From assembly GCA_001704065.1 (NCBI GenBank), contig LHBX01000065.1:1-32828 (forward strand): a DNA stretch of 32,828 bases. Reading direction: 5' to 3'. Under the pieces are notes generated by a model. The model was not told where the DNA came from. It ran no database searches and saw only the letters and a list, made by a program, of their open reading frames with translations. The position numbers and the translations under genes are program-made. This DNA is from Pelagibacteraceae bacterium GOM-A1 (GTDB lineage Bacteria > Pseudomonadota > Alphaproteobacteria > Pelagibacterales > Pelagibacteraceae). Positions 6,619-32,828 of the stretch are shown here, one piece after another; the first letter of the stretch is position 1; each line of letters begins with the position of its first letter.

Positions 6619-6753
6619 ATGAAAAAAAGAAAAAGAAAAAAAAATATTAATAGAGATCATGAGTCAGTGCCTAAGATGTTTGCAAAAAAATATATATATT
6701 TCTATTATCCCTTTTTCTGGATCATTCTAATAATATTCTTATTACTAAAATGA
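6619..6753 (+). CDS. 44-aa basic single-pass membrane peptide upstream of agmatinase
   Basis: Small ORF of 44 codons plus stop. It starts MKKRKRKKNINR, a highly basic head, and ends in a hydrophobic segment (YIYFYYPFFWIILIIFLLLK), the pattern of a single-pass membrane peptide with its basic N-terminus in the cytoplasm. Support for it being real is the junction: its TGA (6751-6753) overlaps the ATG of the agmatinase gene (6750-6752) as ATGA, the classic translational-coupling arrangement seen elsewhere in this window. It fills the gap between the divergent HEXXH gene and the agmatinase. No clear Shine-Dalgarno precedes the ATG and the function is unknown. A short AT-rich ORF could arise by chance, so confidence is moderate. 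Confidence 0.55.
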   Translation: MKKRKRKKNINRDHESVPKMFAKKYIYFYYPFFWIILIIFLLLK

Positions 6754-7703: not shown

Positions 7704-7723
7704 AGAAAGGATAATTTGCGCGG

Positions 7724-20337: not shown

Positions 20338-21663
20338 TTAACAGTCTAGAGTATTCTGTCTTTCCCATTTTGTAATTGGTTTGGACTTATCAAATTTTTC
20401 GTTATCATTAAAATCTTTTAATTCCGAAGTCCTTAACTTGACATAACTTTTAATTACTTCTTTTCCAAATGCTTTATTCATTTCTTTATTATTTTCAATT
20501 TTATCAAGAGAATCTTTTAGTTCATTTGGTAATTTAGAAAGGTTTGGATATTTTTTATAATCCTCATACATATTACAAAAAAGAGGTTTGCCAGGATTAA
20601 TTCTTTTATTTAATCCCTCCATTCCTGCAGCTAATACACTAGCTTGAAGTAAATAAGGATTTGCGGATCCATCCATAAGTCTTAATTCAAATCTTCCTGG
20701 ATCAGGAACCCTTATCATATGTGTACGGTTATTTCCTGTATATGATATACTGCTTGGAGACCATGTGGCACCAGATTTTGTTGGTGCAGCATTTATTCGT
20801 CTGTAACTATTTATTGTTGGATTAAAAAAAGTAGATAAGGATGAAGCATGTTTCATGATGCCTCCTAAAAAGTTATAAGCTGTCTTGCTTAGCCCAAGCT
20901 TATCATGTTTATCAAGAAAGATATTTTTCTTTCCTTTCCATAAAGAAATATGTGCATGACATCCGTTACCAGTTAAATTTTCAAAAGGTTTTGGCATAAA
21001 TGTTGCTCTCAAATCATGCTTTTCTGCAATAGTTTTAACCATAAATTTAAAAAAAGTGTGTCTATCAGCAGTTTTTAGACAATCTGAATAATCCCAATTC
21101 ATTTCAAATTGCCCATTAGCATCTTCATGGTCATTTTGATAAGGACCCCATCCCATTTCAATCATACAATCACAAATTTCTTTTATAAGCTCATATCTTC
21201 TCATTAATGAAGACTGGTCATAACAAGGTTTAGATTGAGTATCTCTATTATCAGCAATTGTGTTCCCATCAGGAGAAATCAAAAAATACTCACACTCCAC
21301 ACCTGACTTCATGCTGTATCCCAATTCAGATAATTTTTTTATTTGTTTTTTTAACATCACTCTTGGTGAAGCATCGACTGGTTTACCATTCATCCATAAA
21401 TCCGAAGCCAACCAACCAACTTCTTTATTCCATGGTAGTTGAATTAAACTGTCAGGATCAGGTATTGCAAACATATCAGAGTCCGCTGGCGTCATATCTA
21501 ACCAAGCTGCAAATCCAGCAAATCCAGCACCATTTACTTGCATATCTTTTATCGCATGAGCAGGAACCAATTTTGATCTTAATACACCAAATAAATCTAC
21601 AAAACTTATTAAAAAATATTTAATTTTTTTTTGTTTTGAAATTTTAAATAAATTTTTTGCCAT
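20338..21663 (-). CDS. Glutamine-synthetase-like ligase, GlnT/GmaS type (paralog 1)
   Basis: ATP-dependent gamma-glutamyl ligase of the glutamine synthetase superfamily, 441 aa, the size of rhizobial GlnT and of gamma-glutamylmethylamide synthetase. Catalytic-domain residues are kept: E123/E125 (VECEYF), E180 and E187 (HEDANGQFE), H236 (NGCHAHIS), Arg in NSYRR, and E326/R328 (FELRLMDGSANPY). The ammonium-site residues are not: the flap Glu of true synthetases (GYEAP) is Trp301 (GATWSP), and the Asp50 position reads Ala (GAGFAGF). Amines such as methylamine or polyamines are therefore likelier acceptors than ammonia (inference). The 1-nt gap to the ammonia-lyase-like gene indicates one operon. 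A second paralog lies at 27256-28725. Confidence 0.88.
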   Translation of the reverse strand: MAKNLFKISKQKKIKYFLISFVDLFGVLRSKLVPAHAIKDMQVNGAGFAGFAAWLDMTPADSDMFAIPDPDSLIQLPWNKEVGWLASDLWMNGKPVDASPRVMLKKQIKKLSELGYSMKSGVECEYFLISPDGNTIADNRDTQSKPCYDQSSLMRRYELIKEICDCMIEMGWGPYQNDHEDANGQFEMNWDYSDCLKTADRHTFFKFMVKTIAEKHDLRATFMPKPFENLTGNGCHAHISLWKGKKNIFLDKHDKLGLSKTAYNFLGGIMKHASSLSTFFNPTINSYRRINAAPTKSGATWSPSSISYTGNNRTHMIRVPDPGRFELRLMDGSANPYLLQASVLAAGMEGLNKRINPGKPLFCNMYEDYKKYPNLSKLPNELKDSLDKIENNKEMNKAFGKEVIKSYVKLRTSELKDFNDNEKFDKSKPITKWERQNTLDC

Positions 21664-21845: not shown

Positions 21846-21884
21846 TAAAAAAAAAAGAGGGCACAGTATTTCATGCGCCCTCTT
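21846..21884 (-). terminator. Rho-independent terminator closing the amt/mgs cluster
   Basis: On the minus strand, 7 nt after the stop of the 73-aa gene, there is a perfect 8-bp stem AAGAGGGC / GCCCTCTT (21877-21884 with 21855-21862) with a 14-nt loop, followed by a run of ten T (21845-21854 region, ten A on the plus strand). The GC-rich stem stands out sharply in this AT-rich sequence. It is the only textbook intrinsic terminator I find in the window. Confidence 0.88.
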
Positions 21885-21891
21885 AAAAGTT

Positions 21892-22113
21892 TTAACCGTC
21901 TGTTATATTACTTTTCCAGTCGTTAGCACTTGGTTTTTTTCTGACAATTGTATTCATCTTACCATCTTCTTGTTTAGATGAAATAATATGCCAGCCAACC
22001 CAAATAAGAATTGCTATTATAACTAGCACTCCTTCCGAACCAACACCTGGATAGACAGATCCTTGTACCTCAGAGGCACTTAAATGATCTATCCAATTTG
22101 ATACTGTTGCCAT
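21892..22113 (-). CDS. 73-aa small membrane protein following amt
   Basis: Unrecognised 73-aa protein with a soluble head of about 25 residues (IDHLSASEVQGSVYPGVGSE), one membrane span (GVLVIIAILIWVGWHII) and a basic, polar tail. It begins 13 nt after the Amt stop and has a near-perfect Shine-Dalgarno (AAAGGAGGT) overlapping that stop, so it should be translated strongly with or above the transporter level. It occupies the position where many bacteria place glnK, the PII regulator of Amt, but it shows no resemblance to PII. A role as an Amt-associated subunit is inference from position. A terminator follows immediately, making it the last gene of the cluster. Confidence 0.78.
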   Translation of the reverse strand: MATVSNWIDHLSASEVQGSVYPGVGSEGVLVIIAILIWVGWHIISSKQEDGKMNTIVRKKPSANDWKSNITDG

Positions 22114-22119
22114 TTACAT

Positions 22120-22128
22120 ACCTCCTTT
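22120..22128 (-). promoter_or_regulatory. Strong Shine-Dalgarno for the 73-aa gene
   Basis: Minus-strand AAAGGAGGT lies six bases before the ATG of the 73-aa gene and overlaps the TAA of the transporter gene. It is closer to the anti-SD consensus than almost any other start in the window, supporting both the reality of the small gene and a high translation rate. Confidence 0.8.
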
Positions 22129-23527
22129 ATCTACTGGCCGAGACTACAGCTTTTTCGTCTTCTTTAGCCTCTTCCATAATTGTATAGTCAAGTCCTGCAA
22201 GTTCTACTTCTCTTGGTATTCTTAATTTACCCATTCCGTGAAGAACTTTTGCAATTATATATCCAGGAAGCATACCTAGTACAAAAAACATTATTATTGC
22301 ACCGATAAACATTCCAAGAGGATTAATTGCTGCATAATTAGTTCCATCCCACATAGCTCCAACACTGTATCCAGATGAAGGATAACCATTTAAAACGAAA
22401 CCACATATCACAAGACCAACAAATCCAGCATAACCATGAACAGCTACTGCTCCAACTGCATCGTCGATTTTATATTTTTTCTCGACCCAGTAATGCATTT
22501 TGTAAGCTATAACTACTCCGATCATACCGATTATCATTGATTGTATTGGATGATATAAATCATTACCTGCAGATGCACATATTATTCCCGCAAGTCCTGA
22601 TGAATAAGTCCAGAAGGGATCTCCCTTCGAGATCACATATCCTGCTAACAACCCTCCAGATAACGACATTAAAAAGTTCATCGTTATTCCGCTAAGTGTG
22701 GTTGGAGTTAGGTAGATGTTCGTTGCAGTAAAGAAAGTTACACCTTCCATACCATATTCAGGTCCAAGATCATAAATCGGAACATTACATGCAGCGTAAA
22801 AGCCCCAAAAACCTGTATAGATTAAGAATAATCCAACAGTCACTAACCAAGGATTTCTTGGTCCAATGTTTCTTGGTTCTCCGCTAGATGAAAATTTTCC
22901 AATTCTTGGTCCTAAAACAATTAGAACACCTAAGGCAAAACCTCCGGCAATTGCGTGAATTACTCCGGAAGCATAAGCATCGTGATATCCTAATATTTTT
23001 AACATCCATCCATCAAAATGCCATCCCCATGAAGCATCTATTGTCCAGAAAACAGATCCAATTGCAATTGCAAGTATTCCAAATGCAAAAGTAGTTATCC
23101 TTTCAATAACCGCTCCAGATACAATTGAAGCTGCAGTCCATGAAAATAATAAAAAGGCTGCCCAGAAGACACCCATTATATGATCATTAAGATTTACGGC
23201 CATCAATGCATTTGTAGGATTAGCAAGATCATTTCCACCAAATCCTCCTCCAAGAACTAGACCAGTACTTTCGGTCATAATCGAAGGAGCTAATCCAGGT
23301 CCTGTTGGAAATGCCCAGTATATCCACCAACCAAAGAAAAACCATGTGACTGTTACCAGTGGTATCAGCATTGTATTTTTCATAAGAGTGTGTTGGTGAT
23401 GTTTGTAACGAGATGCCCCAACTTCATACATACAGAAACCCACGTGGATCAAAAACATAAGAACCACAGTTACCCAATAGTAAAATTCTGTAAATAAGGT
23501 TGTGAGAGCACCTAATTGATCAGTCAT
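22127..23527 (-). CDS. amt: Ammonium/methylammonium transporter, Amt family
   Basis: Inner-membrane channel-like importer, 466 aa with about 11 spans. Conducting-path residues are present: Phe128 (AmtB F107), Trp in SWGWHFDGW, D183, the twin histidines H191 and H364 (AVHGYAG), and Phe243 (F215). Two differences appear by ungapped comparison: the outer-site Ser219 is Cys247 (GFYAAC), and the C-terminal GLDxxxHGE motif reads GLDYTIMEE. That tail normally couples subunits and meets GlnK, and no glnK is nearby. Translation starts from a good AGGAGAGAG (23532-23540). Placement after glutamate-synthase-like genes suggests uptake of ammonium or methylammonium for the same pathway. A 13-nt gap links it to the 73-aa gene. 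Confidence 0.95.
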   Translation of the reverse strand: MTDQLGALTTLFTEFYYWVTVVLMFLIHVGFCMYEVGASRYKHHQHTLMKNTMLIPLVTVTWFFFGWWIYWAFPTGPGLAPSIMTESTGLVLGGGFGGNDLANPTNALMAVNLNDHIMGVFWAAFLLFSWTAASIVSGAVIERITTFAFGILAIAIGSVFWTIDASWGWHFDGWMLKILGYHDAYASGVIHAIAGGFALGVLIVLGPRIGKFSSSGEPRNIGPRNPWLVTVGLFLIYTGFWGFYAACNVPIYDLGPEYGMEGVTFFTATNIYLTPTTLSGITMNFLMSLSGGLLAGYVISKGDPFWTYSSGLAGIICASAGNDLYHPIQSMIIGMIGVVIAYKMHYWVEKKYKIDDAVGAVAVHGYAGFVGLVICGFVLNGYPSSGYSVGAMWDGTNYAAINPLGMFIGAIIMFFVLGMLPGYIIAKVLHGMGKLRIPREVELAGLDYTIMEEAKEDEKAVVSASR

Positions 23528-23608
23528 ATTTCTCTCTCCTATTAATAGTTAATAGACTCTATGAAATTTTTTTTACGCTGACAATTTTATTTTATTTATA
23601 AAAAGTAG

Positions 23609-23633
23609 AAGTTAATAATTATTTTATCAACTT
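23609..23633 (-). repeat. Inverted repeat in the amt upstream spacer
   Basis: Arms AAGTTAATAA (23609-23618) and TTATCAACTT (23624-23633) pair at nine of ten positions around a 5-nt spacer. It lies just downstream of the 136-aa gene stop and about 80 nt before the amt start, within the only sizeable spacer (116 nt) of the cluster. It could be an operator, a processing or attenuation hairpin, or chance in AT-rich DNA. The rest of the spacer shows a TATAAA-like stretch but no convincing -35/-10 pair. Confidence 0.35.
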
Positions 23634-23643
23634 GAAATTGAAA

Positions 23644-24054
23644 TTAGAATTTTAAATATGCTTTTTTAAGGTCAACCAGAGGATGATTCGGGGACATTTG
23701 AAACTTTACCAATAATTCTCTAGCTATCATATCTCTATCCTGCTGATTATTAGGTAATTTTATTTTACTTGGTATCGTTACCCAACCGTTCGCATTTCTA
23801 TCGAATACAGCAGGTCTATTTTCTTCATAACCCATATGTACATCTTCTAACCAATTAAGATCATCCCAACCCATAGCTTCTATATATTTTTTTAAAAATG
23901 GAGTGAGTCGACTATAGTCAGGCAAAAGATTAACGTCATATCGATAGCCAATTGTTTGGCCAATCATTTTTTCTCTAGCAGTCTCTTTTTTCTTGCCTAA
24001 TTGACCTTTGATCTCTTTTGATTTGACTTTTTTCTTACCTTTTTTCTTTGGCAT
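23644..24054 (-). CDS. Lys-rich 136-aa protein of unknown function, mgs cluster
   Basis: I do not recognise this family. The first 30 residues are extremely basic (MPKKKGKKKVKSKEIKG, then KKKETAREK) and probably disordered. A more ordinary globular part follows, with DYSRLTPFLKKYIEAMGWDD, LNWLEDVHMGYEENRPAVFD, GWVTIPSKIKLP and a final LLVKFQMSPNHPLVDLKKAY. No membrane span, metal motif or signal peptide is seen. It lies 8 nt after the FMN-subunit gene, in the same direction, so it is cotranscribed with the three synthase subunits. It could be a fourth subunit or assembly factor. The basic head could bind nucleic acid or an acidic partner. These roles are inference. Confidence 0.75.
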   Translation of the reverse strand: MPKKKGKKKVKSKEIKGQLGKKKETAREKMIGQTIGYRYDVNLLPDYSRLTPFLKKYIEAMGWDDLNWLEDVHMGYEENRPAVFDRNANGWVTIPSKIKLPNNQQDRDMIARELLVKFQMSPNHPLVDLKKAYLKF

Positions 24055-24062
24055 ATTTGCTA

Positions 24063-25454
24063 TTAGATTTTATGGAAATCTTTAACTCCTACTGTATGAT
24101 TTGTTCCTGCAAGTGGCACTTTAGCTAAAGCAGAAGCCTCCATTGTTAATGCAGCCATATCTTCTGGCTCTAGCGAGTGAATATTTGTTTTTCCACATGC
24201 TCTAGCCAACAATTGAGCCTCCAATGTCATTGCGTGCAAATAGTTATATACTCTTAATGCAGCGTCATCAGGATTTAATCTTTTTCTTAATTTAGGATCT
24301 TGAGTAGCAACTCCTACCGGACATCTACCCGTGTGACAGTGATAGCAATGACCTGCGGGAACACCCATTTCTTTTTCAAAGTTAGATTCTGGTATTTCCT
24401 TATTGCAATTTAAAGCCACCATTGCGCCTGTTCCGATTGCAATTGCGTCTGCACCAAGTGCTAAAGCTTTAGCCATATCTGCTCCATCTCTAACGCCACC
24501 TGCATAAATTAAAGTTACTTTTCCAGTTTTACCTACATCATCCAAAGCTCTTCTTGCTTCTCTAATTCCAGCAATTCCTGGTATACCTGTGTTTGCAGCT
24601 GCAATGTGTGGTCCAGCACCTGTTGAACCTTCCATTCCATCAAGATAAATTGAATCTGGATCACATTTTGCTGCCATCCTTACATCATCATACACTTTAG
24701 CTGCTCCAAGTTTTAATTGAATTGGCACTTTGTTTTTTGTTAATTCTCTAAGCTCTTGAACTTTTAAAGCTAAATCATCTGGACCCAGCCAATCAGGATG
24801 TCTTGCTGGAGATCTTTGATCAATACCCGCAGGTAGCGATCTCATTTCTGCAACTTGGTCAGTAACTTTTTGACCCATCAAATGACCACCCATTCCAACT
24901 TTTTGTCCTTGTCCAATAAATACCTCAATTCCATCAGCTAGTTGTGCATGGTGTGGGTTAAAACCGTATCTTGATTGTATGCACTGATAAAACCATTTTT
25001 CTGAATATCTTCTCTCATCTGGTATCATACCACCTTCACCAGAACATGTTGCGCTACCAGCCATTGTAGCACCTCTAGCTAATGCAGTTTTTGCTTCATA
25101 AGATAAAGCTCCAAAACTCATTCCCGTTATGTAAACTGGAATATCAAGTTCAATTGGATTTTCACATCTTGGACCAATAATAGTTTTGGTCTCACATTTT
25201 TCTCTGTAACCTTCAATAACAAATCTTGTTAATGTCCCTGGCAAGAAAACTAGATCATCAAAAGTAGGTATCTTTTTCATCAAAGCCATTCCTCTCATTC
25301 TGTATCTTCCTAATTCCGCTTTGATATGAATGTCGTCCATAACTTCAGGAGTAAAAATAGCGTTGTGTCCTAACAAACTTTTGTTTCTTGAAGCTATTCC
25401 ATTACCATTAGAATGTCCGTTTGACTTTCCATTACCATTTTTTTTCTTTGCCAT
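24063..25454 (-). CDS. FMN-binding glutamate-synthase-like subunit (MgsC/GlxD type)
   Basis: The reductive-amination subunit of a split glutamate-synthase-like enzyme, 463 aa. After a Gly/Asn/Lys-rich disordered head of about 22 residues, the FMN-barrel motifs are seen: PVYITGMSFGALS, GSATCSGEGGM, QLKLGAAKVYDD, YLDGMEGSTGAGP and LIYAGGVRDGADMAKALALGAD. An iron-sulfur cysteine set follows (GHCYHCHTGRCPVGVATQDP), resembling the 3Fe-4S motif of GltB. In N-methylglutamate synthase this subunit joins the released amine to 2-oxoglutarate. The start sits inside a good SD context (AAAAGGAGC) in the preceding gene, whose TAA directly abuts the ATG. Electron donor unknown; no GltD-like subunit in the window. 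Confidence 0.9.
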   Translation of the reverse strand: MAKKKNGNGKSNGHSNGNGIASRNKSLLGHNAIFTPEVMDDIHIKAELGRYRMRGMALMKKIPTFDDLVFLPGTLTRFVIEGYREKCETKTIIGPRCENPIELDIPVYITGMSFGALSYEAKTALARGATMAGSATCSGEGGMIPDERRYSEKWFYQCIQSRYGFNPHHAQLADGIEVFIGQGQKVGMGGHLMGQKVTDQVAEMRSLPAGIDQRSPARHPDWLGPDDLALKVQELRELTKNKVPIQLKLGAAKVYDDVRMAAKCDPDSIYLDGMEGSTGAGPHIAAANTGIPGIAGIREARRALDDVGKTGKVTLIYAGGVRDGADMAKALALGADAIAIGTGAMVALNCNKEIPESNFEKEMGVPAGHCYHCHTGRCPVGVATQDPKLRKRLNPDDAALRVYNYLHAMTLEAQLLARACGKTNIHSLEPEDMAALTMEASALAKVPLAGTNHTVGVKDFHKI

Positions 25455-26309
25455 TTAAATTGCTCCTTTTTTTTCTGTAGGTTCAAGAGCATCGTAATTC
25501 CAAAGTTTTTTTCCTGCTACAACTTTGGTCATCTTAGAAACATCGAAGTTTTCTCCGATCTCCGCAACCTTTAATTTTCTTTTAAGCCAGTCTTGATCTG
25601 AATCAGTTAATTCAGCTTCGACAGCATCACTACCAAATGATCCAATTTTTCCACCTACAAAAATTGTCCCATCATACATAGAATCTCCTAAATTTATTCC
25701 AACATCTCCAAGAATAATAATTCGCCCTCTCTGCATCATAAAACCTGTAAAAGCACCAGCATCTCCGCCAATAATTATTGTTCCACCTTTTTGATCAATT
25801 CCTGTTCTGGCACCTACGCTTCCTTTGCATATCAGATCTCCACCTCTAATTGCCGCACCGAAACAAGACCCTGCATTTTTTTCAATTACTACTTTTCCTG
25901 CCATCATATTTTCTGCACATGACCATCCCACTCTTCCATTAATTCTAACAATAGGACCATCCATTGATCCACACCCAAAGTAACCCAAACTACCTTCAAA
26001 TATTAAATTTAATTTATTGAGAATTCCAACTCCCAAGCTATGTTTTCCCTGTGGGTTCTTTATTACAATAGTTCCGTATCCATCTTTCATTAATTCATCA
26101 ATTTTTTTATTTGCTTCACGACAATCCATGTTCTTAACGTCAATTTCAGTTCTTTTATTAAAATCTACATCATATGTCCCAAAGTAATAAAAATTCTCTG
26201 CCTCATCTGGATTAAAAAATTTTTGTTGTGTTTTTCCAGTTAAGACTTCTGTATGAAGTCCCATTGATTGAGCTTTACTTTTTTTTTCTGATGTTTTTAA
26301 ATTTGCCAT
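25455..26309 (-). CDS. GXGXG-domain glutamate-synthase-like subunit (MgsB/GlxC type)
   Basis: Right-handed beta-helix subunit equivalent to the C-terminal domain of the GltB large chain. The repeating GxxG strands are plain: EGSLGYFGCGSMDGP, NGRVGWSCAENMMAG, EKNAGSCFGAAIRGGDL, GSVGARTGID, GGDAGAFTGFMMQRG and GDVGINLGDSMYDGT. At 284 aa it is longer than usual GlxC/MgsB proteins as I recall them (about 225-230 aa). The extra part is an N-terminal segment of roughly 60 residues (TEVLTGKTQQKFFNPDEAEN) that I do not recognise. It has a structural role tying the amidotransferase and FMN parts together. It overlaps the upstream gene by 13 nt and abuts the downstream one, so tight coupling of the three subunits is expected. 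Confidence 0.88.
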   Translation of the reverse strand: MANLKTSEKKSKAQSMGLHTEVLTGKTQQKFFNPDEAENFYYFGTYDVDFNKRTEIDVKNMDCREANKKIDELMKDGYGTIVIKNPQGKHSLGVGILNKLNLIFEGSLGYFGCGSMDGPIVRINGRVGWSCAENMMAGKVVIEKNAGSCFGAAIRGGDLICKGSVGARTGIDQKGGTIIIGGDAGAFTGFMMQRGRIIILGDVGINLGDSMYDGTIFVGGKIGSFGSDAVEAELTDSDQDWLKRKLKVAEIGENFDVSKMTKVVAGKKLWNYDALEPTEKKGAI

Positions 26310-27238
26310 ACTTTAACTTCTCCATCAAAAGGATCATAAGTTTCGATTTCTTGTGGTAATATTGATCTTATTGCAATTTCCTCTGACCCCATTGCAACTA
26401 AATCATCTGACTCATACAATACTAGTGGTTTTGCAGCCATTGTATCTTTCGCCATTCCTAAGCTATCTTTTGTAGCAACAAAATAAGTAAATACCCCATC
26501 TAAACCGACGAGAGACTCTTTCATTCCCTCTTCTAATGTAGCTCCATTTCTCATTTTTTCTGCAAGATATACAGCGATTAATTCAGAGTCACATTCTGAC
26601 ATAAATCTCATGCCCTTGTTTTCCAATACTCTTCTATTATTCCAATAGTTTGTTAATTGTCCATTATGAACGACTGACACATCGCTAAAAGGATAACCCC
26701 AAAATGGGTGAGCAGATTTAATATCCACTCCCGACTCTGTTGCCATCCTAGCATGACCAATTGCATGTGTCCCGACAACTTTATCTAAATTATATCTGTT
26801 ACAAACAACTTCAGCGTTTCCTAGATCTTTAATTACTTCTAGAGATTTTCCCATAGATAATATTTCTACACCTTCAACACTTTCTATTTTTTGAGAAAAT
26901 TCCATTAAATCTTTGTCATACTGAATTTCATATCGTAATGAATAAGGAAGAATTCTATCTTCTTTTATCACTTTAGCGCCTAGCTTAGAAAGATAAGAAT
27001 CAACAATTTTTTTTCTTTCGTCATAAACTGATACATCTTCTTTTACTGAAGAACTTCCCTCTGCAACATTTTCACCAACCTTAAATCGCATGATGAAATT
27101 TTGACCGTCAGTTTTTCCGTATAGAGCGTATCCTGTTGAATCTTCTCCTCTATGCTTTAATGCTTGAAGCATACCTTGAAGTTCAAAACCAACGTTTGAA
27201 GTATTTCCTCTATGAATTAATCCTGCAATCCCGCACAT
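26297..27238 (-). CDS. Class II glutamine-amidotransferase subunit (MgsA/GlxB type)
   Basis: Ntn-type amidotransferase of 313 aa that removes the gamma-amide or gamma-amine of its substrate. The catalytic Cys2 is exposed after Met removal (MCGIAGL). HRGEDSTGYALYG, GHARMATESGVD with AHPFW, SVVHNGQLTNYWNNRR and SECDSELIA form the standard substrate pocket. It corresponds to the N-terminal domain of GltB and to MgsA of N-methylglutamate synthase, where gamma-glutamylmethylamide rather than glutamine is the donor. An SD-like AAGGAA precedes the ATG. It lies 17 nt after the glutamine-synthetase-like gene, so maker and user of the gamma-glutamyl amide would be produced together. Confidence 0.9.
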   Translation of the reverse strand: MCGIAGLIHRGNTSNVGFELQGMLQALKHRGEDSTGYALYGKTDGQNFIMRFKVGENVAEGSSSVKEDVSVYDERKKIVDSYLSKLGAKVIKEDRILPYSLRYEIQYDKDLMEFSQKIESVEGVEILSMGKSLEVIKDLGNAEVVCNRYNLDKVVGTHAIGHARMATESGVDIKSAHPFWGYPFSDVSVVHNGQLTNYWNNRRVLENKGMRFMSECDSELIAVYLAEKMRNGATLEEGMKESLVGLDGVFTYFVATKDSLGMAKDTMAAKPLVLYESDDLVAMGSEEIAIRSILPQEIETYDPFDGEVKVWQI

Positions 27239-27255
27239 ATAATTTCCTTATTAAA

Positions 27256-28725
27256 TTATGGTAAACAATCCAGATAAGTATCAAGATCCCATTGTGTTGT
27301 TGCACCCAAGAATTTTTCCCACTCATCTCGTTTGTACCAATTAAATACTTTATACATTTCATCTGGCATTGATGATTTTATAACATCATCCTCCGCCAAT
27401 CTATCTAAAGCCTCACCTAAACTTAGTGGAAGTTTTTTAACATCTTTACCAGCTTTTTGAGCTTCATATATATTTCTAGACTCTGGTTTAGCTGGTTTCA
27501 TTTTTTTAGATATTCCCTCATCACAAGCTTTAAGTAATGCTGCACCTAATAAATATGGATTATGCATAGAGTCAACTGATCTGTACTCAAATCTACCCGG
27601 AGCAGATACTCTTAGACCACAAGTTCTATTTTGATAACCCCAGTCAGCATATACTGGTGCCCAAAAACCTTGATCCCATAATCTTCTATACGAGTTCACT
27701 GTCGAAGAACCAATTGCTGTTAAAGCTGGCAAGTGTTTCATTATCCCTGCGATTGATTGTAATCCAATCTTTCCAGGCAATTGCATATCCTTAGTATCTG
27801 GCATGAAAGTATTAGTTCCACCGGATACATAGCTAAAGACTTCTTCTACACCTGGAAGTTTTTTGTTACCCAATTTGTTTACTGATACTTTTCCACCTTT
27901 CCACAAAGACATGTTGGTGTGACATCCACTTGCTGAAACTCCCATAAATGGTTTAGTCATAAAGCAAGCTATAAGATTATGTTCTCTTGCTACTTGAGCA
28001 CAAATTTGTCTATACGTAGATAATCTATCAGCATTTCTTAAAACATTATCAAAAGTCCAGTTAAGTTCTAATTGGCCAGGTGCATCTTCATGGTCACCTT
28101 GGATCATATCAAGACCCATCGCTTTTGCGTATTCAATAACCTTCATAAACACAGGTCTTAATGATTCAAATTGATCAATATGATAACAGAAAGGTTTTGA
28201 GAAACCTTGTCCAGTTGGAGTTCCGTCAGGATTTTTTGTTAACCACATCATTTCAGGCTCTGTTCCAACTCTTAATTCTAATCCATGTTTCTTTTTGAAC
28301 TCATTCATGAAAATTCTAAGGTTACCTCTGCAGTCACTTGTTAAATGACCACCTGGATTTTTTCTTTCTTCTCTATTTCTAAAACATGTAACAAAAACTC
28401 TTCCAACTCTCTTATCCCAAGGCAATTGAACAAAAGTTTCTGGATCAGGTATTCCTACCAATTCCATAGCTTCTGGACCATAACCAATATAATTATTATG
28501 ACGATCTAAAAATAAGTTTGCTGTTGCTCCATAAACCAATTGAAAACCTTTTTCTGCAGTTCTTTCCCAATGATCTGCTGGTATTCCTTTTCCAACAACT
28601 CTTCCAGTTACTGAAATAAATTGATAATAGATATAAGTAATTCCTAATTCGTTTATTTTTTCTCTAACCTTTTTGACGAGTTTAGCTCTACCTGGTTGGT
28701 TTACGTGTTTTTCAAGATCCGTCAT
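27256..28725 (-). CDS. Glutamine-synthetase-like gamma-glutamyl-amine ligase (paralog 2, GmaS-like)
   Basis: Glutamine-synthetase superfamily ligase of 489 aa. Metal and ATP site residues are kept: E156/E158 (GTEPEMM), E213 and E220 (HEDAPGQLE), H269 (SGCHTNMS), NSYRR, NRT, and E380/R382 (FEYRSVD). As in the other paralog, the flap Glu327 that deprotonates ammonium is replaced: GFWAP (Trp355) stands where GYEAP is expected. The Asp50 position reads Gln (GFQLVY). With the MgsABC-like genes directly after it, a role as gamma-glutamylmethylamide (or other amine) synthetase fits better than glutamine synthesis; this is inference. A strong AAAGGGGG SD precedes the ATG. It is about 50 residues longer than paralog 1, partly in an insertion around GKIGLQS. 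Confidence 0.87.
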   Translation of the reverse strand: MTDLEKHVNQPGRAKLVKKVREKINELGITYIYYQFISVTGRVVGKGIPADHWERTAEKGFQLVYGATANLFLDRHNNYIGYGPEAMELVGIPDPETFVQLPWDKRVGRVFVTCFRNREERKNPGGHLTSDCRGNLRIFMNEFKKKHGLELRVGTEPEMMWLTKNPDGTPTGQGFSKPFCYHIDQFESLRPVFMKVIEYAKAMGLDMIQGDHEDAPGQLELNWTFDNVLRNADRLSTYRQICAQVAREHNLIACFMTKPFMGVSASGCHTNMSLWKGGKVSVNKLGNKKLPGVEEVFSYVSGGTNTFMPDTKDMQLPGKIGLQSIAGIMKHLPALTAIGSSTVNSYRRLWDQGFWAPVYADWGYQNRTCGLRVSAPGRFEYRSVDSMHNPYLLGAALLKACDEGISKKMKPAKPESRNIYEAQKAGKDVKKLPLSLGEALDRLAEDDVIKSSMPDEMYKVFNWYKRDEWEKFLGATTQWDLDTYLDCLP

Positions 28726-28740
28726 TCTTCCCCCTTTGAA

Positions 28741-28767
28741 TTTTCAGATCAAAAAGGTAACTGAAAA
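28741..28767 (-). repeat. Inverted repeat in the ligase leader
   Basis: Perfect 7-bp arms TTTTCAG (28741-28747) and CTGAAAA (28761-28767) around a 13-nt loop lie in the 67-nt spacer before the 489-aa ligase, ending near its Shine-Dalgarno. It could be a weak hairpin that tunes expression between the FAD gene and the ligase. A chance repeat is also possible. Confidence 0.3.
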
Positions 28768-28792
28768 AAAAACGTTTGTCTACTTAGATAAA

Positions 28793-30121
28793 TTAGCTCC
28801 AAGGAAACGGACTGTTCGATGTCGGATGAAGTTTTCCTTTTTCATATCTATCGAACCTAAACGGTTTTAATAATTCACTTTCATGACCTAAAATTTCTTG
28901 TGCAACAAGGTGACCAACACCTATCATTTTATAACCATGATTTGCATCTGCAATCATGTAAACATTTTCAAAAAATCTATCAAATATTGGGAATGAGTCT
29001 GGCGTCAAACAACCCAGTCCTCCTGATGGTCCCTTTCTATACAGATGAGATTTACCAACAAAACGTTTTTGAATATGTGCAAGTGCTGAAGTCCACATAT
29101 CTGAAAATTTATCAGTAGTTTGATATTCTGGAGAATCTATCCCATACGGATCAACATTAACTTCATCAAAATGTTTTTGAACAATGTAAGGTGATGTTCC
29201 ACCTTGAACTCCCAATCCTTCAATATCAGGTTTATAATAAATACCCCATAAGTCTTCTGTAATTATTTTACCATCTTTGTCAGAATAAAGTGGCGCATCT
29301 GTATCAACATGAATTACTGGAGGCGGTTTACCTTCATTAGTTTTTAAATAATTTGCATCTACACCCAATACACCCTCTTGTAAAAACCAGTACTTCCACA
29401 TTTCAACTTCATGCATTTTTCCATTTTTAGCATCTTTTATGTTTGTAGTTTTTGGTAACTCCAACATATTCCAAAAATCCCTTACCCATGGTCCTGCTCC
29501 AATAACTACTTGATCACAATCAATTGTACCTTTATCTGTAACGACGCCAGTAATTGCATTGCTGTTACTCCCTCTTTTAAAACCTGTAACCTTTACTCCT
29601 TTATGAACGTTTACACCGTTTGAATTTGCTTTTTTCTCTAGTGCTTTAATTGAGTCTTTATTAAATGCGTATCCACCTTTTTTTTCATGCAAGACTGATG
29701 TAATACCTTTTGCTTGCCAATCACTAAAAATTCCTTGCATATATTTCATGCAATCTTTTTCACCTTCTATAAATTCTGATTCATATCCAATAGCTTTTTG
29801 TTGTTCATAAATACTTGCAACATCTTTATGCATTACTTCTGGAGAAATTTGCATATAGCCAACAGCATTATATTTAAATGCCTCTGGATCACTTTCCCAA
29901 ACACTAACTGAATGAGCCATTAATTCTCTCATTGCTGGTTGAAAATAATTATTTCTAACAACTCCACATGCAATTCCACTTGCACCTGCGGCAGTGTCCT
30001 TTTTTTCTAGGACAACTACATCGTTAGGATTTTTATATTTTTCTGAAAGTTTCCAAGCAGTGCTTAACCCGTGAATTCCTCCACCAATTATAACAACTTT
30101 TGCTTTTGTCGGTAACGACAT
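28793..30121 (-). CDS. SoxB/DAO-type FAD-dependent amine oxidoreductase
   Basis: FAD-dependent oxidoreductase of 442 aa in the D-amino-acid-oxidase fold, nearest by eye to the beta subunit of heterotetrameric sarcosine oxidase (SoxB) and to MgdA. The dinucleotide-binding motif is GGGIHGLSTAW at residues 13-23 with the ribose-binding Glu40. GASGIACGVVRNNYFQP follows, as in SoxB proteins, and SGGLGCLTPDSFPIFD and IADANHGYKMIGVGHL close the C-terminal FAD site. Such enzymes oxidise N-methyl amines and pass the methyl carbon to tetrahydrofolate on a T-protein domain. The GcvT-like protein two genes upstream would supply that. SoxA, SoxD and SoxG partners are absent from the window. Confidence 0.88.
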   Translation of the reverse strand: MSLPTKAKVVIIGGGIHGLSTAWKLSEKYKNPNDVVVLEKKDTAAGASGIACGVVRNNYFQPAMRELMAHSVSVWESDPEAFKYNAVGYMQISPEVMHKDVASIYEQQKAIGYESEFIEGEKDCMKYMQGIFSDWQAKGITSVLHEKKGGYAFNKDSIKALEKKANSNGVNVHKGVKVTGFKRGSNSNAITGVVTDKGTIDCDQVVIGAGPWVRDFWNMLELPKTTNIKDAKNGKMHEVEMWKYWFLQEGVLGVDANYLKTNEGKPPPVIHVDTDAPLYSDKDGKIITEDLWGIYYKPDIEGLGVQGGTSPYIVQKHFDEVNVDPYGIDSPEYQTTDKFSDMWTSALAHIQKRFVGKSHLYRKGPSGGLGCLTPDSFPIFDRFFENVYMIADANHGYKMIGVGHLVAQEILGHESELLKPFRFDRYEKGKLHPTSNSPFPWS

Positions 30122-30173
30122 GAACGAACTTTAATTTTTTAGCAAAGGAAAGAATATAATAATTTTTATATAT

Positions 30174-30187
30174 AATTTATATAAATT
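30174..30187 (-). promoter_or_regulatory. 14-bp perfect AT palindrome, candidate operator
   Basis: AATTTATATAAATT reads the same on both strands and lies in the 89-nt spacer between the MarR-like gene and the FAD gene, about 50 nt before the FAD start. MarR proteins bind palindromes near their own genes, so it is a candidate operator or -10 region. Because it contains only A and T it carries little information. Confidence 0.3.
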
Positions 30188-30210
30188 CTAAATATTAGTG
30201 AGAATTTTAT

Positions 30211-30561
30211 TTAAAAACTCAAATTTTTGAGAGTTTTCAAATATTCGTTAAATTCATTAACAAAATTCTGTGTGGGTAAAACGTACTTTTTTCTATGGTC
30301 ATTTCCGGTTTTCTCGAGGTAGAAAAATTCTTTATCACAAGCTTCCTTGATCATGAGTGCAGATTTGGGCCTTGAGGTTTTAAATAGTCTAGTCTTAAGT
30401 TCTTCGACAGATAAGTTTTCATTTAACTTATAAGAATTCATCACAATCAACATCATGTGATAATGTGAAGGAGACTTTCTGAAAAAGTAATTACTGGATG
30501 TATGGGATAGTTTCATTTGATCTTCCCAAAATTCCAATAAATCCTTTGATGATTTTGACAT
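30211..30561 (-). CDS. MarR-like winged-helix regulator
   Basis: A 116-aa predicted DNA-binding protein. Residues about 50-80 (LSVEELKTRLFKTSRPKSAL, then MIKEACDKEFFYLEK) fit a winged helix with its recognition helix. The wing and following strand read GNDHRKKYVLPT, close to the D-x-R...T signature of MarR-type wings. An N-terminal helix and a C-terminal helix (FVNEFNEYLKTL) would form the dimer interface. Its ATG overlaps the stop of the DUF1989-aminomethyltransferase gene (TAATG), so it is translated within the operon rather than from a separate unit. Local control of the amine cluster is inferred. No ligand can be predicted. Confidence 0.75.
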   Translation of the reverse strand: MSKSSKDLLEFWEDQMKLSHTSSNYFFRKSPSHYHMMLIVMNSYKLNENLSVEELKTRLFKTSRPKSALMIKEACDKEFFYLEKTGNDHRKKYVLPTQNFVNEFNEYLKTLKNLSF

Positions 30562-32828
30562 TAAGATTTTACACGTGTTTTTTGAGGATCGTAATGTGGG
30601 AAACCAACAACTTTAGCAGGTATTCTTTTTTGATGTCCATCAATTTTACCAACTTCAACATTCATACCTATTTCTGAATGACCAACATCAATTCTGCACA
30701 AAGCAATATTTTTATTTAAAGTAGGAGATAGACATCCGCTTGTAACTACGCCAACTTGTGATCTTCCAATATGAACGCAATCACCGTGATTAGCTTTTTC
30801 TTTGCCTACAAGTTCTAATCCAACTAATTTCTTTTGGGGATTTTCTTTTCTCTTTATTAATGCTTCTTTACCAATGAAATCTGCTGTTTTTGTTTTTAAA
30901 GGAACCGTAAATCCAACACCTGCTTCAAACGGGTCAATTTGGCCATCAAATTCATTACCAAACAATATTAGACCAGCTTCAATTCTTAATAAATCTAATG
31001 CTCCAAAACCAGCAGGTATTAATCCTTCATCTTTTCCAGCTTCCATAAGCACATCCCAAACTGCTGGTGCATCAGAAGGATGACACCATATTTCATATCC
31101 TAATTCACCTGTATATCCAGTTCTAGAAACCATTAATGGAATTCCGCTAAGTTCTTTAACTCTACAAATTGTGAACCTAAACCATTGCAATTCTGAAATA
31201 GATGGTTGTGTTGGCGGAGTAAAAACAAACTTTTCTAAAATTTTTCTACTATTTGGTCCTTGTAGAGAAATAATTATTTGATCAGTAGAGTTTTTAACTA
31301 AAACATTAAATCTTTTCTTTTTTGCTTGCTCTTTTAACCATTCACCTGCGTATTCATCACCACATACCCATCTAAATCCATGATCACTCATTTTTAACAA
31401 TGTTCCATCATCAAACATAGAACCATTTTCATAACACATTGAAGAATAAACAATCTGTCCAACCGACAATTTTTTAACATTTCTAGTTAAAGTATAGTCC
31501 ATCAATTCTTCTGCATCCGGACCTAATATTTCAAATTTTCTTAAAGAGGATAAATCAATTAGAACTGCTTTTTCTCTACACGCTGTATATTCATTTATTA
31601 CTCCGTGTTTAGTGTAATCATTGGGCAGCCAATATCCTCTAGCATCAACAAAGTTTCTTGTTAACTTAGAAGTTCTTTCATGAAATCCTGTATTTTTTGT
31701 TAGTTTTAATTCTGAATCTGGTTTCATTCTAAATGCAAAAGATTTTGTAAATTCTCTTTTTTTTTCGTAAGTTCTAACAAAAATATCTGTAGGGTTCCAT
31801 GAATTACATGGATCTATATCACTTGGACAGGCTGATGTTCCGCAGGTTAAATCTTTTAAAGCTCTTAATATTACATAATCTCCAGGTCTAGCAAATGACT
31901 CATCAGAAAGTACGGTATTTAAGCCTCCTGCTGAGGTATTAAAAAATAAATTTATAGCGTGCCATCCCTTTTGTCTATTAACCCCAAAATTTTCCATAGC
32001 ACCACTTAAGTTATCTGAGCAATTTGGATGCCCAAAATAACCAGCATCTTCGTAATACTTCGATGTACAAGCAAGATTAAAAGTGTCATGTCTACCAACA
32101 GTATCTCTTATTACTTCTACTAAAGGCTCATGGTCTGTATCATAAAATTTTGAATACAATCCTGGTCCTGGAAATGTATTTCCCATAAAGGTCCTAGTTG
32201 TTTGCCAATCTAAACCTTTTTCAATACCTTTACCTAATTTAGCTGTATCAAAAGCAACAAAATCTGAACATTGTCTACCAGTTGGACAAATTATTTGAAT
32301 ATAATCTCCTTCTTTAACTTCAAAAGAAATCGCTGATTGTTTTGCAATATTTTTTTCGTCTAGAGGATCAAAAATTGGATCTGGAATTATTCTATGTTCT
32401 TTATAGTCAACAATATTATTTCTTTTAATAAATAAAGTTAATTCTGTTGGAGGATTTTGTTCATGAACCAACATATCATTACCAGGTGCAGAAAAGATGC
32501 AATAACATTTATCTTTTGAACTTATTTTAATTTTTTCTCCTGGTGGAGTGTCTTTATCAAAAAGGATTGAAGATTTAGATTTTGCTATTTTAAGATTTCT
32601 TTTTTCTAATTGGCGCAAAGCAATTTTCGAACTTTCTTCATTTCTATTTAAAATTTTAATTATATCATTTTCTGATTTAGATGATTTTAAATTCAAAATT
32701 GATGGATCCGAATTTCCATCAGAATTAAAAACAACTATTTCACAAATTTGATTTCCTTCATTATTAATAATTTCAATTTCATCATCCGGAAAAACCTGAA
32801 TTCCTGTTAATCCGCCGCCATTAACTAC
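30561..32828 (-). CDS. DUF1989-aminomethyltransferase (GcvT-like) fusion, 5' partial
   Basis: Large fusion open at the right edge. A TTG at 32696 would give 711 aa, but the frame continues another 44 codons to the edge with no stop, and those residues (GIQVFPDDEIEIINNEGNQI) resemble a DUF1989-like beta segment, so the start lies outside. Counting from that TTG, residues about 125-310 are a DUF1989 domain with its Cys/His set: GRHDTFNLAC (C210), GHPNCSDNL (H223, C226) and CGTSACPSDIDPC (C285, C290, C297). Residues 340-711 are a folate-binding T-protein fold (GSMFDDGTLL with catalytic-type Asp, ISLQGPNSR, SRTGYTGELGYEIW, IDPFEAGVGFTV). DUF1989 proteins include carboxyguanidine deiminase, and T-proteins collect methylene groups on tetrahydrofolate. 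The combined substrate is unknown. Confidence 0.88.
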   Translation of the reverse strand, partial: VVNGGGLTGIQVFPDDEIEIINNEGNQICEIVVFNSDGNSDPSILNLKSSKSENDIIKILNRNEESSKIALRQLEKRNLKIAKSKSSILFDKDTPPGEKIKISSKDKCYCIFSAPGNDMLVHEQNPPTELTLFIKRNNIVDYKEHRIIPDPIFDPLDEKNIAKQSAISFEVKEGDYIQIICPTGRQCSDFVAFDTAKLGKGIEKGLDWQTTRTFMGNTFPGPGLYSKFYDTDHEPLVEVIRDTVGRHDTFNLACTSKYYEDAGYFGHPNCSDNLSGAMENFGVNRQKGWHAINLFFNTSAGGLNTVLSDESFARPGDYVILRALKDLTCGTSACPSDIDPCNSWNPTDIFVRTYEKKREFTKSFAFRMKPDSELKLTKNTGFHERTSKLTRNFVDARGYWLPNDYTKHGVINEYTACREKAVLIDLSSLRKFEILGPDAEELMDYTLTRNVKKLSVGQIVYSSMCYENGSMFDDGTLLKMSDHGFRWVCGDEYAGEWLKEQAKKKRFNVLVKNSTDQIIISLQGPNSRKILEKFVFTPPTQPSISELQWFRFTICRVKELSGIPLMVSRTGYTGELGYEIWCHPSDAPAVWDVLMEAGKDEGLIPAGFGALDLLRIEAGLILFGNEFDGQIDPFEAGVGFTVPLKTKTADFIGKEALIKRKENPQKKLVGLELVGKEKANHGDCVHIGRSQVGVVTSGCLSPTLNKNIALCRIDVGHSEIGMNVEVGKIDGHQKRIPAKVVGFPHYDPQKTRVKS

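What the first reader, a model, noticed from the sequence alone, without database searches (positions are those of the whole stretch)
21892..32828. Compact N-methylglutamate-like amine pathway with a replaced dehydrogenase
In one direction the cluster carries a GcvT-like protein, a MarR-like regulator, a SoxB-like FAD enzyme, a GmaS-like ligase, three MgsABC-like subunits, an unknown protein, an Amt and a small membrane protein. The known methylamine route is GmaS, then MgsABC, then the four-subunit MgdABCD. Here MgdB, C and D are missing. One FAD protein plus a DUF1989-T-protein fusion could do that step, like a split dimethylglycine dehydrogenase. With Amt for uptake, the cluster would turn methylamine (or another amine) into glutamate nitrogen and a folate-bound C1 unit.
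Basis: partly seen in the sequence, partly recalled or inferred. Interest (0 to 1): 0.82.

Follow-up and report, generated by a model that had tools for sequence, protein, structure and literature searches.

The report
Likely dimethylamine pathway in SAR11 bacteria
A gene set beside the TMAO demethylase of an ocean SAR11 bacterium looks like the missing way these very abundant microbes use dimethylamine, by tying it to glutamate instead of attacking it with the known monooxygenase; the function is inferred from genome comparison and has not been tested at the bench.

Summary
The genes are real, but the proposed pathway needs changing. The "DUF1989-T fusion" is a TMAO demethylase (Tdm), which makes dimethylamine (DMA). 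MgdABCD is not missing: two soxBDAG-type tetramers lie on other contigs, one of them Mgd-like. The canonical GmaS lies just outside the coordinates (20338-21663). The finding's ligase (gs489) and Mgs-like trio are paralogues of GmaS and MgsABC; some relatives carry both sets. With an FAD enzyme and an unknown 136-aa protein (p136) they form a module; p136 occurs in 25 of 276 sampled alphaproteobacterial genera.

In 385 sampled Alphaproteobacteria, p136 (37 genomes) tracks Tdm (35; 26 shared). Among Tdm genomes it excludes the DMA monooxygenase: of 22 genera, 15 have p136, 6 Dmm, none both (two weak hits aside), 1 neither. Dmm is absent from 197 sampled genomes of the SAR11 order, yet HTCC1062 grows on TMAO as sole nitrogen.

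Best explanation: a DMA route in which gs489 makes gamma-glutamyldimethylamide, the trio makes N,N-dimethylglutamate, the FAD enzyme demethylates it, and MgdABCD finishes. The chemistry is inferred. The main rival is direct DMA demethylation by the FAD enzyme. The paper searches run listed no description of the module.

The parts
30561..32828 (-). tdm: TMAO demethylase type (DUF1989 + GCV_T + GCV_T_C), 755 aa, 5' end cut by the contig end
   Evidence: NF053776 1089 bits, cut-off 1100, model positions 18-762; PDB 9q59
30211..30561 (-).
   Evidence: no hit; 38; 76 of 80 named loci
28793..30121 (-). fad442: FAD-dependent DAO-family oxidoreductase; proposed N,N-dimethylglutamate dehydrogenase
   Evidence: module member
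27256..28725 (-). gs489: GmaS-like ligase of a separate clade; proposed gamma-glutamyldimethylamide synthetase
   Evidence: residues; tree
26297..27238 (-). MgsA-like class-II glutamine amidotransferase, Cys2 nucleophile
25455..26309 (-). MgsB/GlxC-like GXGXG protein, longer than the plasmid MgsB proteins (284 against 225-229 aa)
24063..25454 (-). MgsC/GlxD-like FMN glutamate-synthase domain; keeps Cys 370/373/378
23644..24054 (-). p136: conserved 136-aa protein of unknown family, marker of the module
22127..23527 (-). Amt-family transporter (SAR11_1310 counterpart by order)
   Evidence: (under the TIGR00836 cut-off, 181 against 343 bits)
21892..22113 (-). 73-aa small protein between amt and gmaS
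   Evidence: TIGR03105 618 bits, cut-off 470; 566 bits to RhGmaS 7cql

Best explanation
The cluster degrades TMAO. Tdm turns TMAO into dimethylamine (DMA) plus a C1 unit (known enzyme type). The module fad442-gs489-trio-p136 is an alternative to the DMA monooxygenase DmmDABC. Proposed chemistry, by analogy with the N-methylglutamate pathway: gs489 ligates DMA to glutamate with ATP; the three-subunit Mgs-like enzyme releases DMA from the amide and reductively condenses it with 2-oxoglutarate to N,N-dimethylglutamate; the FAD enzyme removes one methyl group, giving N-methylglutamate and a C1 unit; MgdABCD, encoded elsewhere, converts N-methylglutamate to glutamate and a second C1 unit. The canonical GmaS feeds free methylamine into the same synthase where MgsABC has been lost. 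Shown by sequence: gene content, order, paralogy, conserved catalytic residues, co-occurrence with Tdm, mutual exclusion with Dmm. Inferred: all substrates and reactions of the module. p136 has no assigned role.
For: (1) Linkage to Tdm: 12 of 15 SAR11 loci, 73 of 80 named loci; in the class sample p136 lies within 10 kb of Tdm in 13 of the 26 genomes that hold both, in 5 genera. An OpuAC binding protein (TmoX type) stands next to tdm in the 2 relatives checked. (2) Co-occurrence in 385 Alphaproteobacteria: p136 37, Tdm 35, both 26, Fisher p=2.6e-24. (3) Exclusion with Dmm: of 35 Tdm genomes, the 26 with p136 have 0 strong DmmC hits (2 weak), the 9 without p136 have 6 strong (1 weak); p=5e-5, or 1.7e-4 with weak hits counted; by genus 15 p136, 6 Dmm, 0 both, 1 neither. 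(4) 0 of 197 sampled genomes of the SAR11 order have PF11927, whereas HTCC1062 grows on TMAO as sole nitrogen and its authors expected an unknown DmmDABC isoenzyme (PMC8918994, passages). (5) gs489 keeps the GmaS amine-site and catalytic residues and lacks the ammonia-site Asp, but is a separate clade. (6) Two GmaS-like ligases and one Mgs-type synthase in the window genome suggest two amines. (7) RhGmaS makes the DMA amide only with Km 16 mM against 27 uM for methylamine (PMC7948447, section 4), so a dedicated ligase is plausible. (8) An Mgd-like tetramer is present.
Against: No biochemical or genetic data. 11 of 37 p136 genomes have no Tdm and 3 of 35 Tdm genomes have neither p136 nor a strong DmmC. 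In the SAR11-order sample fad442 occurs without gs489 in 7 of 100 genomes and Tdm without gs489 in 7 of 96: G063 (99% complete) has fad442 beside sugar-uptake genes, G004 beside canonical mgsABC-gmaS with no Tdm match, and G045/G084 beside tdm and Mgd. One relative (L222) pairs the trio with a GmaS-type ligase, with no fad442 in the stretch. Amt in the operon points to ammonium-like substrates. The amine-site residues are the same as in GmaS, so sequence does not show a DMA preference. fad442 matches known N-demethylating flavoenzymes only over about 230 N-terminal residues.
Confidence: 0.55

Rival explanations
1. The FAD enzyme oxidises free DMA directly to methylamine and a C1 unit, and gs489 plus the trio form a second methylamine (N-methylglutamate) pathway.
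For: Explains the Tdm link and Dmm exclusion equally well; fad442 without gs489 sits beside tdm and Mgd in G045/G084; a GmaS-type ligase replaces gs489 before the trio in L222; Lidbury 2017 mentions a predicted general amine oxidase expressed by HTCC1062 under nitrogen limitation (PMC5520151, passages).
Against: gs489 would duplicate GmaS, yet both are kept in the window genome and in many relatives (64 of 80 named loci reach glnT441); gs489 never occurs without fad442 in 93 of 93 SAR11-order genomes, unexpected if it served methylamine alone; the DAO-family relatives found by profile (sarcosine, dimethylglycine, amino-acid deaminase) act on amino acids.
Confidence: 0.22
2. The module handles ammonium or another amine (a GS-GOGAT-like bypass with Amt, or a longer-chain amine) and sits near Tdm because nitrogen-scavenging genes cluster.
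For: Amt in the SAR11 operon; gs489 relatives on Paracoccus and Ruegeria plasmids lie in other operons with aldehyde dehydrogenase or P450 and type-1 amidotransferase; 11 of 37 p136 genomes lack Tdm.
Against: Loss of the ammonia-site Asp (Val in 27 of 27) and of the flap Glu (Trp in 27 of 27), as in GmaS; exclusion with Dmm among Tdm genomes.
Confidence: 0.13
3. One reading: a methylamine pathway whose Mgd step is done by the FAD protein plus the DUF1989-T fusion.
For: The FAD protein and the fusion are near neighbours; the fusion has a folate-binding GcvT half.
Against: The fusion is Tdm-type. Complete tetramers exist elsewhere in the genome. Other genomes carry close Mgd relatives (MgdA 71-73% to R. 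etli) in the same stretch as the module (L216, L217, L219).
Confidence: 0.05

Closest known systems
N-methylglutamate pathway (GmaS, MgsABC, MgdABCD)
   Same: Ligase of GmaS fold with GmaS catalytic residues; three-subunit Mgs-like synthase; Mgd-like tetramer in the genome.
   Different: gs489 is a separate clade (29-32% to GmaS); trio 33-37% (A, B) and 50-53% (C) to the plasmid MgsABC; extra FAD enzyme and p136; linked to Tdm.
DMA monooxygenase DmmDABC (TMAO/TMA catabolic cluster of Ruegeria pomeroyi)
   Same: Proposed to fill the same pathway position after Tdm; mutually exclusive with p136 among Tdm genomes, weak hits aside.
   Different: Other protein families; PF11927 absent from 197 sampled genomes of the SAR11 order.
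TMAO demethylase of Methylocella silvestris type (NF053776; PDB 9q59)
   Same: Full-length alignment, same DUF1989+GcvT architecture.
Dimethylglycine dehydrogenase/oxidase and sarcosine oxidase beta
   Same: DAO/FAD domain shared with fad442 over the N-terminal half.
   Different: fad442 has no folate half of its own; soxB cut-off far from met (82 against 529 bits).
SAR11 methylamine genes of Sun et al. 2011 (glnT, glxBCD, two soxBDAG, SAR11_1303-1304)
   Same: Those authors proposed NMG-route methylamine use in HTCC1062 and noted SAR11_1304 beside an aminomethyltransferase (PMC3160333, passages).
   Different: In the passages seen they did not separate the second ligase-synthase set (SAR11_1305-1309 by inferred order) or propose it for DMA.

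Membership tests
TMAO demethylase (Tdm) | DUF1989 + GCV_T + GCV_T_C architecture, full-length match | tested here: met
TMAO demethylase (Tdm) | NCBIfam NF053776 curated cut-off (1100 bits) | tested here: not met
   1089.4 bits for a protein cut at the contig end; full-length relative G062 1081.7. Called a Tdm-type enzyme on architecture and best match, not as a formal member of this model.
GmaS | gs489 inside the GmaS clade | tested here: not met
   separate clades, GS489 97/97 and GmaS 100/99
GmaS | gs489 keeps GmaS catalytic residues (Asp177, Glu186, Arg312) and lacks the GS ammonia-site Asp | tested here: met
   27 of 27 gs489 sequences
GmaS | glnT441 (20338-21663) inside the GmaS clade and over the TIGR03105 cut-off | tested here: met
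   618 bits, cut-off 470
N-methylglutamate synthase MgsABC | three adjacent subunits: class-II amidotransferase with Cys2, GXGXG protein, FMN glutamate-synthase domain | tested here: met
N-methylglutamate synthase MgsABC | MgsC-like subunit inside the canonical clade | tested here: inconclusive
   divergent and canonical rows separate but with support 66/87 and one very long row; some genomes hold both copies
N-methylglutamate dehydrogenase MgdABCD | four soxBDAG-type subunits in the genome | tested here: met
   L014 3717-8820 (MgdA-like 59-62%, MgdC-like 42-44% to the tetramers beside plasmid mgs-gmaS; SoxD and SoxG by Pfam); a second operon in L017
DMA monooxygenase DmmDABC | DmmC (PF11927) present | tested here: not met
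   0 of 197 sampled genomes of the order; own genome none; control R. etli DmmC 234 bits
Sarcosine oxidase beta / MgdA | fad442 over the TIGR01373 cut-off | tested here: not met
   82 against 529 bits
DMA pathway via glutamate conjugates | ligation of DMA by gs489, synthesis of N,N-dimethylglutamate, its demethylation by fad442 | not testable with these tools
   needs enzyme assays

The most novel reading that the evidence does not exclude
Many Alphaproteobacteria, SAR11 among them, use dimethylamine through N,N-dimethylglutamate: a dedicated gamma-glutamyldimethylamide synthetase, a dimethylglutamate synthase with a new small subunit (p136), and a dimethylglutamate dehydrogenase, as a widespread alternative to the DMA monooxygenase.
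Probability: 0.45. Interest if true: 0.88.

Novelty: new variant of a known kind. Interest (0 to 1): 0.8.

Why it matters
SAR11 is among the most abundant bacterial groups in the ocean. It carries Tdm but no known way to use the DMA that Tdm makes; Lidbury et al. called this a bottleneck and linked it to the abundance of DMA-derived aerosols (PMC5520151, abstract and passages), while HTCC1062 nevertheless grows on TMAO nitrogen (PMC8918994, passages). A defined candidate gene set makes this directly testable. If right, it would change estimates of marine DMA turnover that rest on dmm gene counts, and would mean that some genes counted as gmaS or mgs in metagenomes may belong to a DMA route.

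Tried and rejected
Tried without result: AlphaFold2 models of fad442 (mean pLDDT 34) and p136 (43) from shallow permitted alignments were too poor for a fold search, so none was run. p136: no Pfam match in the window protein; among 20 members only stray single-member matches (best E 0.097); best PDB profile hit E 0.008 to an unrelated protein. p136 has no match in the plasmid collection. No Rfam match at gathering threshold and no tRNA in the window. A paper search on dimethylamine, gamma-glutamyldimethylamide and dimethylglutamate listed 20 of 5,312 papers; all 20 hold dimethylamine alone, so no paper held that word together with one of the others, but a paper with only the rarer words could have gone unseen. 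The search on Tdm structure was unhelpful.

Considered and rejected: the fusion as half of a dimethylglycine dehydrogenase (it is Tdm-type); Mgd missing from the genome (complete tetramers exist); gs489 as the canonical GmaS (separate clade; the GmaS is next door); gs489 as an ordinary glutamine synthetase (ammonia-site Asp and flap Glu absent). I did not settle which of the two soxBDAG operons is Mgd beyond identity and synteny.

Limits of the counts: p136 stands for the module in the class sample; its neighbourhood was read in 20 of the 37 p136 genomes, in stretches of 10-20 kb. DmmC was sought in 80 of the 385 class genomes. Both samples are draws from larger groups. The SAR11-order co-occurrence sets were typed from the lists and recounted. 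Related genomes are not independent; genus and family collapses are given for the exclusion test. The reference proteins that I call GmaS, Mgs and Mgd on plasmids are annotated there as type III glutamate--ammonia ligase, GlxC/glutamate synthase family and sarcosine oxidase subunits; the names are mine, from context. The paper library lacks most subscription journals; one paper I wanted was not held.
Full report
WHAT WAS GIVEN AND WHERE IT LIES. The window is the whole of contig C62 (32,828 bases) of a 1.33 Mb draft genome in 73 contigs, 95.4% complete. The 80 best named relatives of its ligase are Pelagibacteraceae records, two of them named Candidatus Pelagibacter ubique, so it is a SAR11 bacterium. 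G+C is 31%.

GENES. On the minus strand, in order: tdm (30561-32828, cut by the contig end), a 116-aa protein with no family hit, fad442 (28793-30121), gs489 (27256-28725), amidotransferase (26297-27238), GXGXG protein (25455-26309), Glu_synthase protein (24063-25454), p136 (23644-24054), Amt (22127-23527), two small ORFs of 73 and 54 aa, and then a second ligase, glnT441 (20338-21663).

CORRECTIONS TO THE FINDING. The DUF1989-GcvT fusion is a TMAO demethylase type: NF053776 gives 1089 bits along the protein (cut-off 1100, not reached) and the PDB TMAO demethylase 9q59 aligns over residues 2-754. The real GmaS is glnT441: 618 bits to TIGR03105 (cut-off 470), 566 bits to RhGmaS 7cql, 53-60% identical to the GmaS-type proteins of four plasmid islands, and inside the GmaS clade. 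MgdABCD is not missing: two soxBDAG-type operons exist, each with all four subunits by Pfam. The one at L014 3717-8820 has an MgdA-like subunit 59-62% and an MgdC-like subunit 42-44% identical to the tetramers beside mgs-gmaS on three plasmids (annotated there as sarcosine oxidase; read as Mgd from context). It is 80-83% (MgdA) and 67-72% (MgdC; one partial) identical to the tetramer beside tdm-fad442 in the other SAR11 family (L177, L178, L180). The second operon, in L017, is more distant (about 52% and 38-40% to the plasmid proteins). Sun et al. 2011 had proposed such operons as Mgd candidates in HTCC1062 without deciding between the two (PMC3160333, passages).

TWO PARALOGOUS SETS. In 4 of 15 SAR11 loci, and in 3 of the 6 single-contig genomes (L173, L174, L175), a second trio stands directly before glnT441, while the window-type trio and gs489 stand upstream of Amt. 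In those three it is 48-49%, 55-58% and 73-82% identical to the R. etli MgsABC. The trio in the window is therefore a paralogue of MgsABC. Of 93 genomes with gs489 in the order sample, 21 have the canonical MgsC. The window genome lacks it (apart from GltB only the window copy and three weak hits) but keeps GmaS. Two ligases with one synthase suggest two amines feeding one synthase.

LIGASE. Aligned with RhGmaS, all 27 module gs489 sequences keep Lys30', Tyr147, Gln175, Asp177, Glu179, Glu186, Asn188, Arg312 and Arg317. Like GmaS they have Trp at the flap position (RhGmaS Trp300) and no Asp at the GS ammonia site (Val; GmaS has Ala). They differ from all 18 GmaS sequences compared at three of the positions looked at (Tyr174 to Ile, His237 to Asn, Ala48 to Val); in the rows printed, window gs489 has a gate loop shortened by 5 residues and an insertion after the Asp50' loop (residue roles from PMC7948447, sections 4 and 7 and passages). 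The tree gives two separate clades, GS489 (27 rows, 97/97) and GmaS (19 rows, 100/99), with the Paracoccus and Ruegeria plasmid proteins next to gs489. So gs489 looks like an amine ligase rather than a glutamine synthetase, and is not a member of the GmaS clade. RhGmaS itself accepts DMA but with Km 16 mM against 27 uM for methylamine.

SYNTHASE AND FAD ENZYME. The amidotransferase keeps Cys2 and 60 other positions that are invariant across 28 divergent and 4 plasmid MgsA sequences. The divergent MgsC-like subunit keeps the cysteines at 370, 373 and 378 in 31 of 31 rows, while 9 of 15 canonical-group rows lack them (their role as iron-sulfur ligands is recalled from glutamate synthase). The MgsC tree separates the groups only weakly (66/87) and has one very long row, so clade status is inconclusive. 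fad442 is a DAO-family flavoprotein; a 22-sequence profile finds sarcosine oxidase, amino-acid deaminase and dimethylglycine dehydrogenase structures, but only over about 230 residues.

THE MODULE IN OTHER ALPHAPROTEOBACTERIA. p136 occurs in 37 of 385 genomes of a class sample, in 25 of 276 genera. In 20 neighbourhoods of 10-20 kb read, gs489-amidotransferase-GXGXG-GlxD-p136 stands in this order in 19 (in L221 with one further ORF drawn in between); in the other (L222) a GmaS-type ligase takes the place of gs489. fad442 is in the stretch in 17 of 20, and upstream of gs489 with at most one gene between in 15; it was not seen in L204, L221 and L222. Tdm is in 5 of the 20 stretches (L205, L206, L207, L216, L217), in three of them with a relative (75-77%) of the FMO-like protein encoded next to the R. 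etli dmm genes, which I read as Tmm (family; the name is inference). Mgd-like genes are in 6 of 20 (four with MgdA at 70-73% to R. etli, L208 and L215 only at 46%), canonical mgs in 3.

CO-OCCURRENCE AND EXCLUSION. Class sample of 385: p136 37, Tdm (NF053776 at E<=1e-100) 35, both 26; Fisher p=2.6e-24. The two lie within 10 kb in 13 of the 26 and within 25 kb in 15 of 26. DmmC (PF11927) was then sought in 80 genomes, all 46 with Tdm or p136 plus 34 others; 11 of 80 have a match. Of the 26 with both Tdm and p136, 0 have a strong hit and 2 have weak ones over the family cut-off (G256 5.6e-14, G560 2.8e-16). Of the 11 with p136 and no Tdm, 0 have a hit. Of the 9 with Tdm and no p136, 6 have a strong hit (G248, G314, G384, G476, G507, G533; the Tdm match of G314 is partial); G398 has none and G483 only a weak one, and both belong to genera whose other members have p136; G558 has neither. 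Of the 34 others, 2 have a hit (G238, G254). Fisher p=5e-5; with weak hits counted as present p=1.7e-4. By genus: 22 Tdm genera, 15 with p136, 6 with strong Dmm, none with both, 1 with neither, p=9e-5; by family 13, 5, 0 and 1, p=5e-4. This is the pattern expected of two alternative ways to do the same step.

WITHIN SAR11. In 197 sampled genomes of the order: fad442 100, gs489 93, Tdm 96, DmmC 0. gs489 never occurs without fad442 (93 of 93); 89 have both gs489 and Tdm, 7 Tdm without gs489, 4 gs489 without Tdm; part of these exceptions are drafts with contig ends at the cluster (for example G033, and its loci). All 80 named loci hold fad442 and gs489 (found with gs489); 48 show all eleven genes in one order and the rest a part of it in the same order.

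LITERATURE. Lidbury et al. 2017 found dmmDABC absent from all SAR11 examined and called it a bottleneck (PMC5520151, passages). The TMAO transporter paper PMC8918994 (passages) showed that HTCC1062 grows on TMAO as sole nitrogen source, though weakly, and suggested an unknown isoenzyme of DmmDABC. HTCC1062 locus numbers seen in papers fit the module: SAR11_1302 OpuAC, 1303 aminomethyltransferase, 1304 monomeric sarcosine oxidase, 1305 glnT, 1309 hypothetical, 1310 amt, 1313-1315 glxBCD (PMC3160333, PMC5069961, PMC2704228, passages); assigning 1304-1309 to fad442, gs489, trio and p136 is inference from order. SAR11_1302 and 1305 are both listed as lowered in sulfur-limited stationary cells (first value 0.22 and 0.19), consistent with shared regulation. 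Searches for DMA with SAR11 or Pelagibacter or related terms, for gamma-glutamyldimethylamide and dimethylglutamate and for the locus tags listed no paper that, by title and start of abstract, describes this module; I did not read all listed papers, and the library lacks most subscription journals.

EXPLANATION. Best supported: a DMA route through glutamate conjugates (see Best explanation), 0.55. That the cluster serves the DMA step at all I put at about 0.75, adding rival 1, in which only fad442 does it. Against it stand the genomes with fad442 or Tdm but no gs489, the p136 genomes without Tdm, the Amt in the operon, and the lack of any assay.

VERDICT. Observation partly confirmed, interpretation partly supported; new variant of a known kind (N-methylglutamate-type pathway), interest 0.8, because it gives a testable gene set for an openly stated gap in the metabolism of SAR11.

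Noticed in passing
window 20338-21663 and 21846-22126: GmaS is kept although the canonical mgsABC that stands before it in some relatives is absent; only 21 of 93 gs489 genomes of the order sample have canonical MgsC.
   Followed up: partly
L058 12523-18690; L059 9925-18965: Paracoccus TOH and Ruegeria SCSIO 43209 plasmids carry close gs489 relatives beside a second glutamine-synthetase-like protein, type-1 amidotransferases, and an aldehyde dehydrogenase or P450: perhaps another glutamylation pathway for an unknown amine.
   Followed up: no
window 23644-24054: p136 is very conserved (63-90% identity to the window protein in the 19 others aligned) across 25 genera of the class sample yet matches no family.
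   Followed up: partly
MgsC rows: Canonical-group MgsC proteins fall into kinds with (6 of 15) and without (9 of 15) the three glutamate-synthase-type cysteines.
   Followed up: no
L209 3416-6260: A further, more distant synthase trio (38-40% identity) lies downstream of an Amt near the module in G305.
   Followed up: no
L172 9432-14640: In G063 fad442 and the 116-aa gene stand without tdm, gs489 or trio, beside an FGGY kinase and an extracellular solute-binding protein.
   Followed up: partly
window 19203-20336: A PALP-family (threonine dehydratase-like) gene follows GmaS in the same direction and keeps this place in many relatives (53 of 80 named loci); its link to amine use is unknown.
   Followed up: no
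window 6750-9157: An arginase-family gene followed by an aldehyde dehydrogenase gene, plus strand.
   Followed up: no
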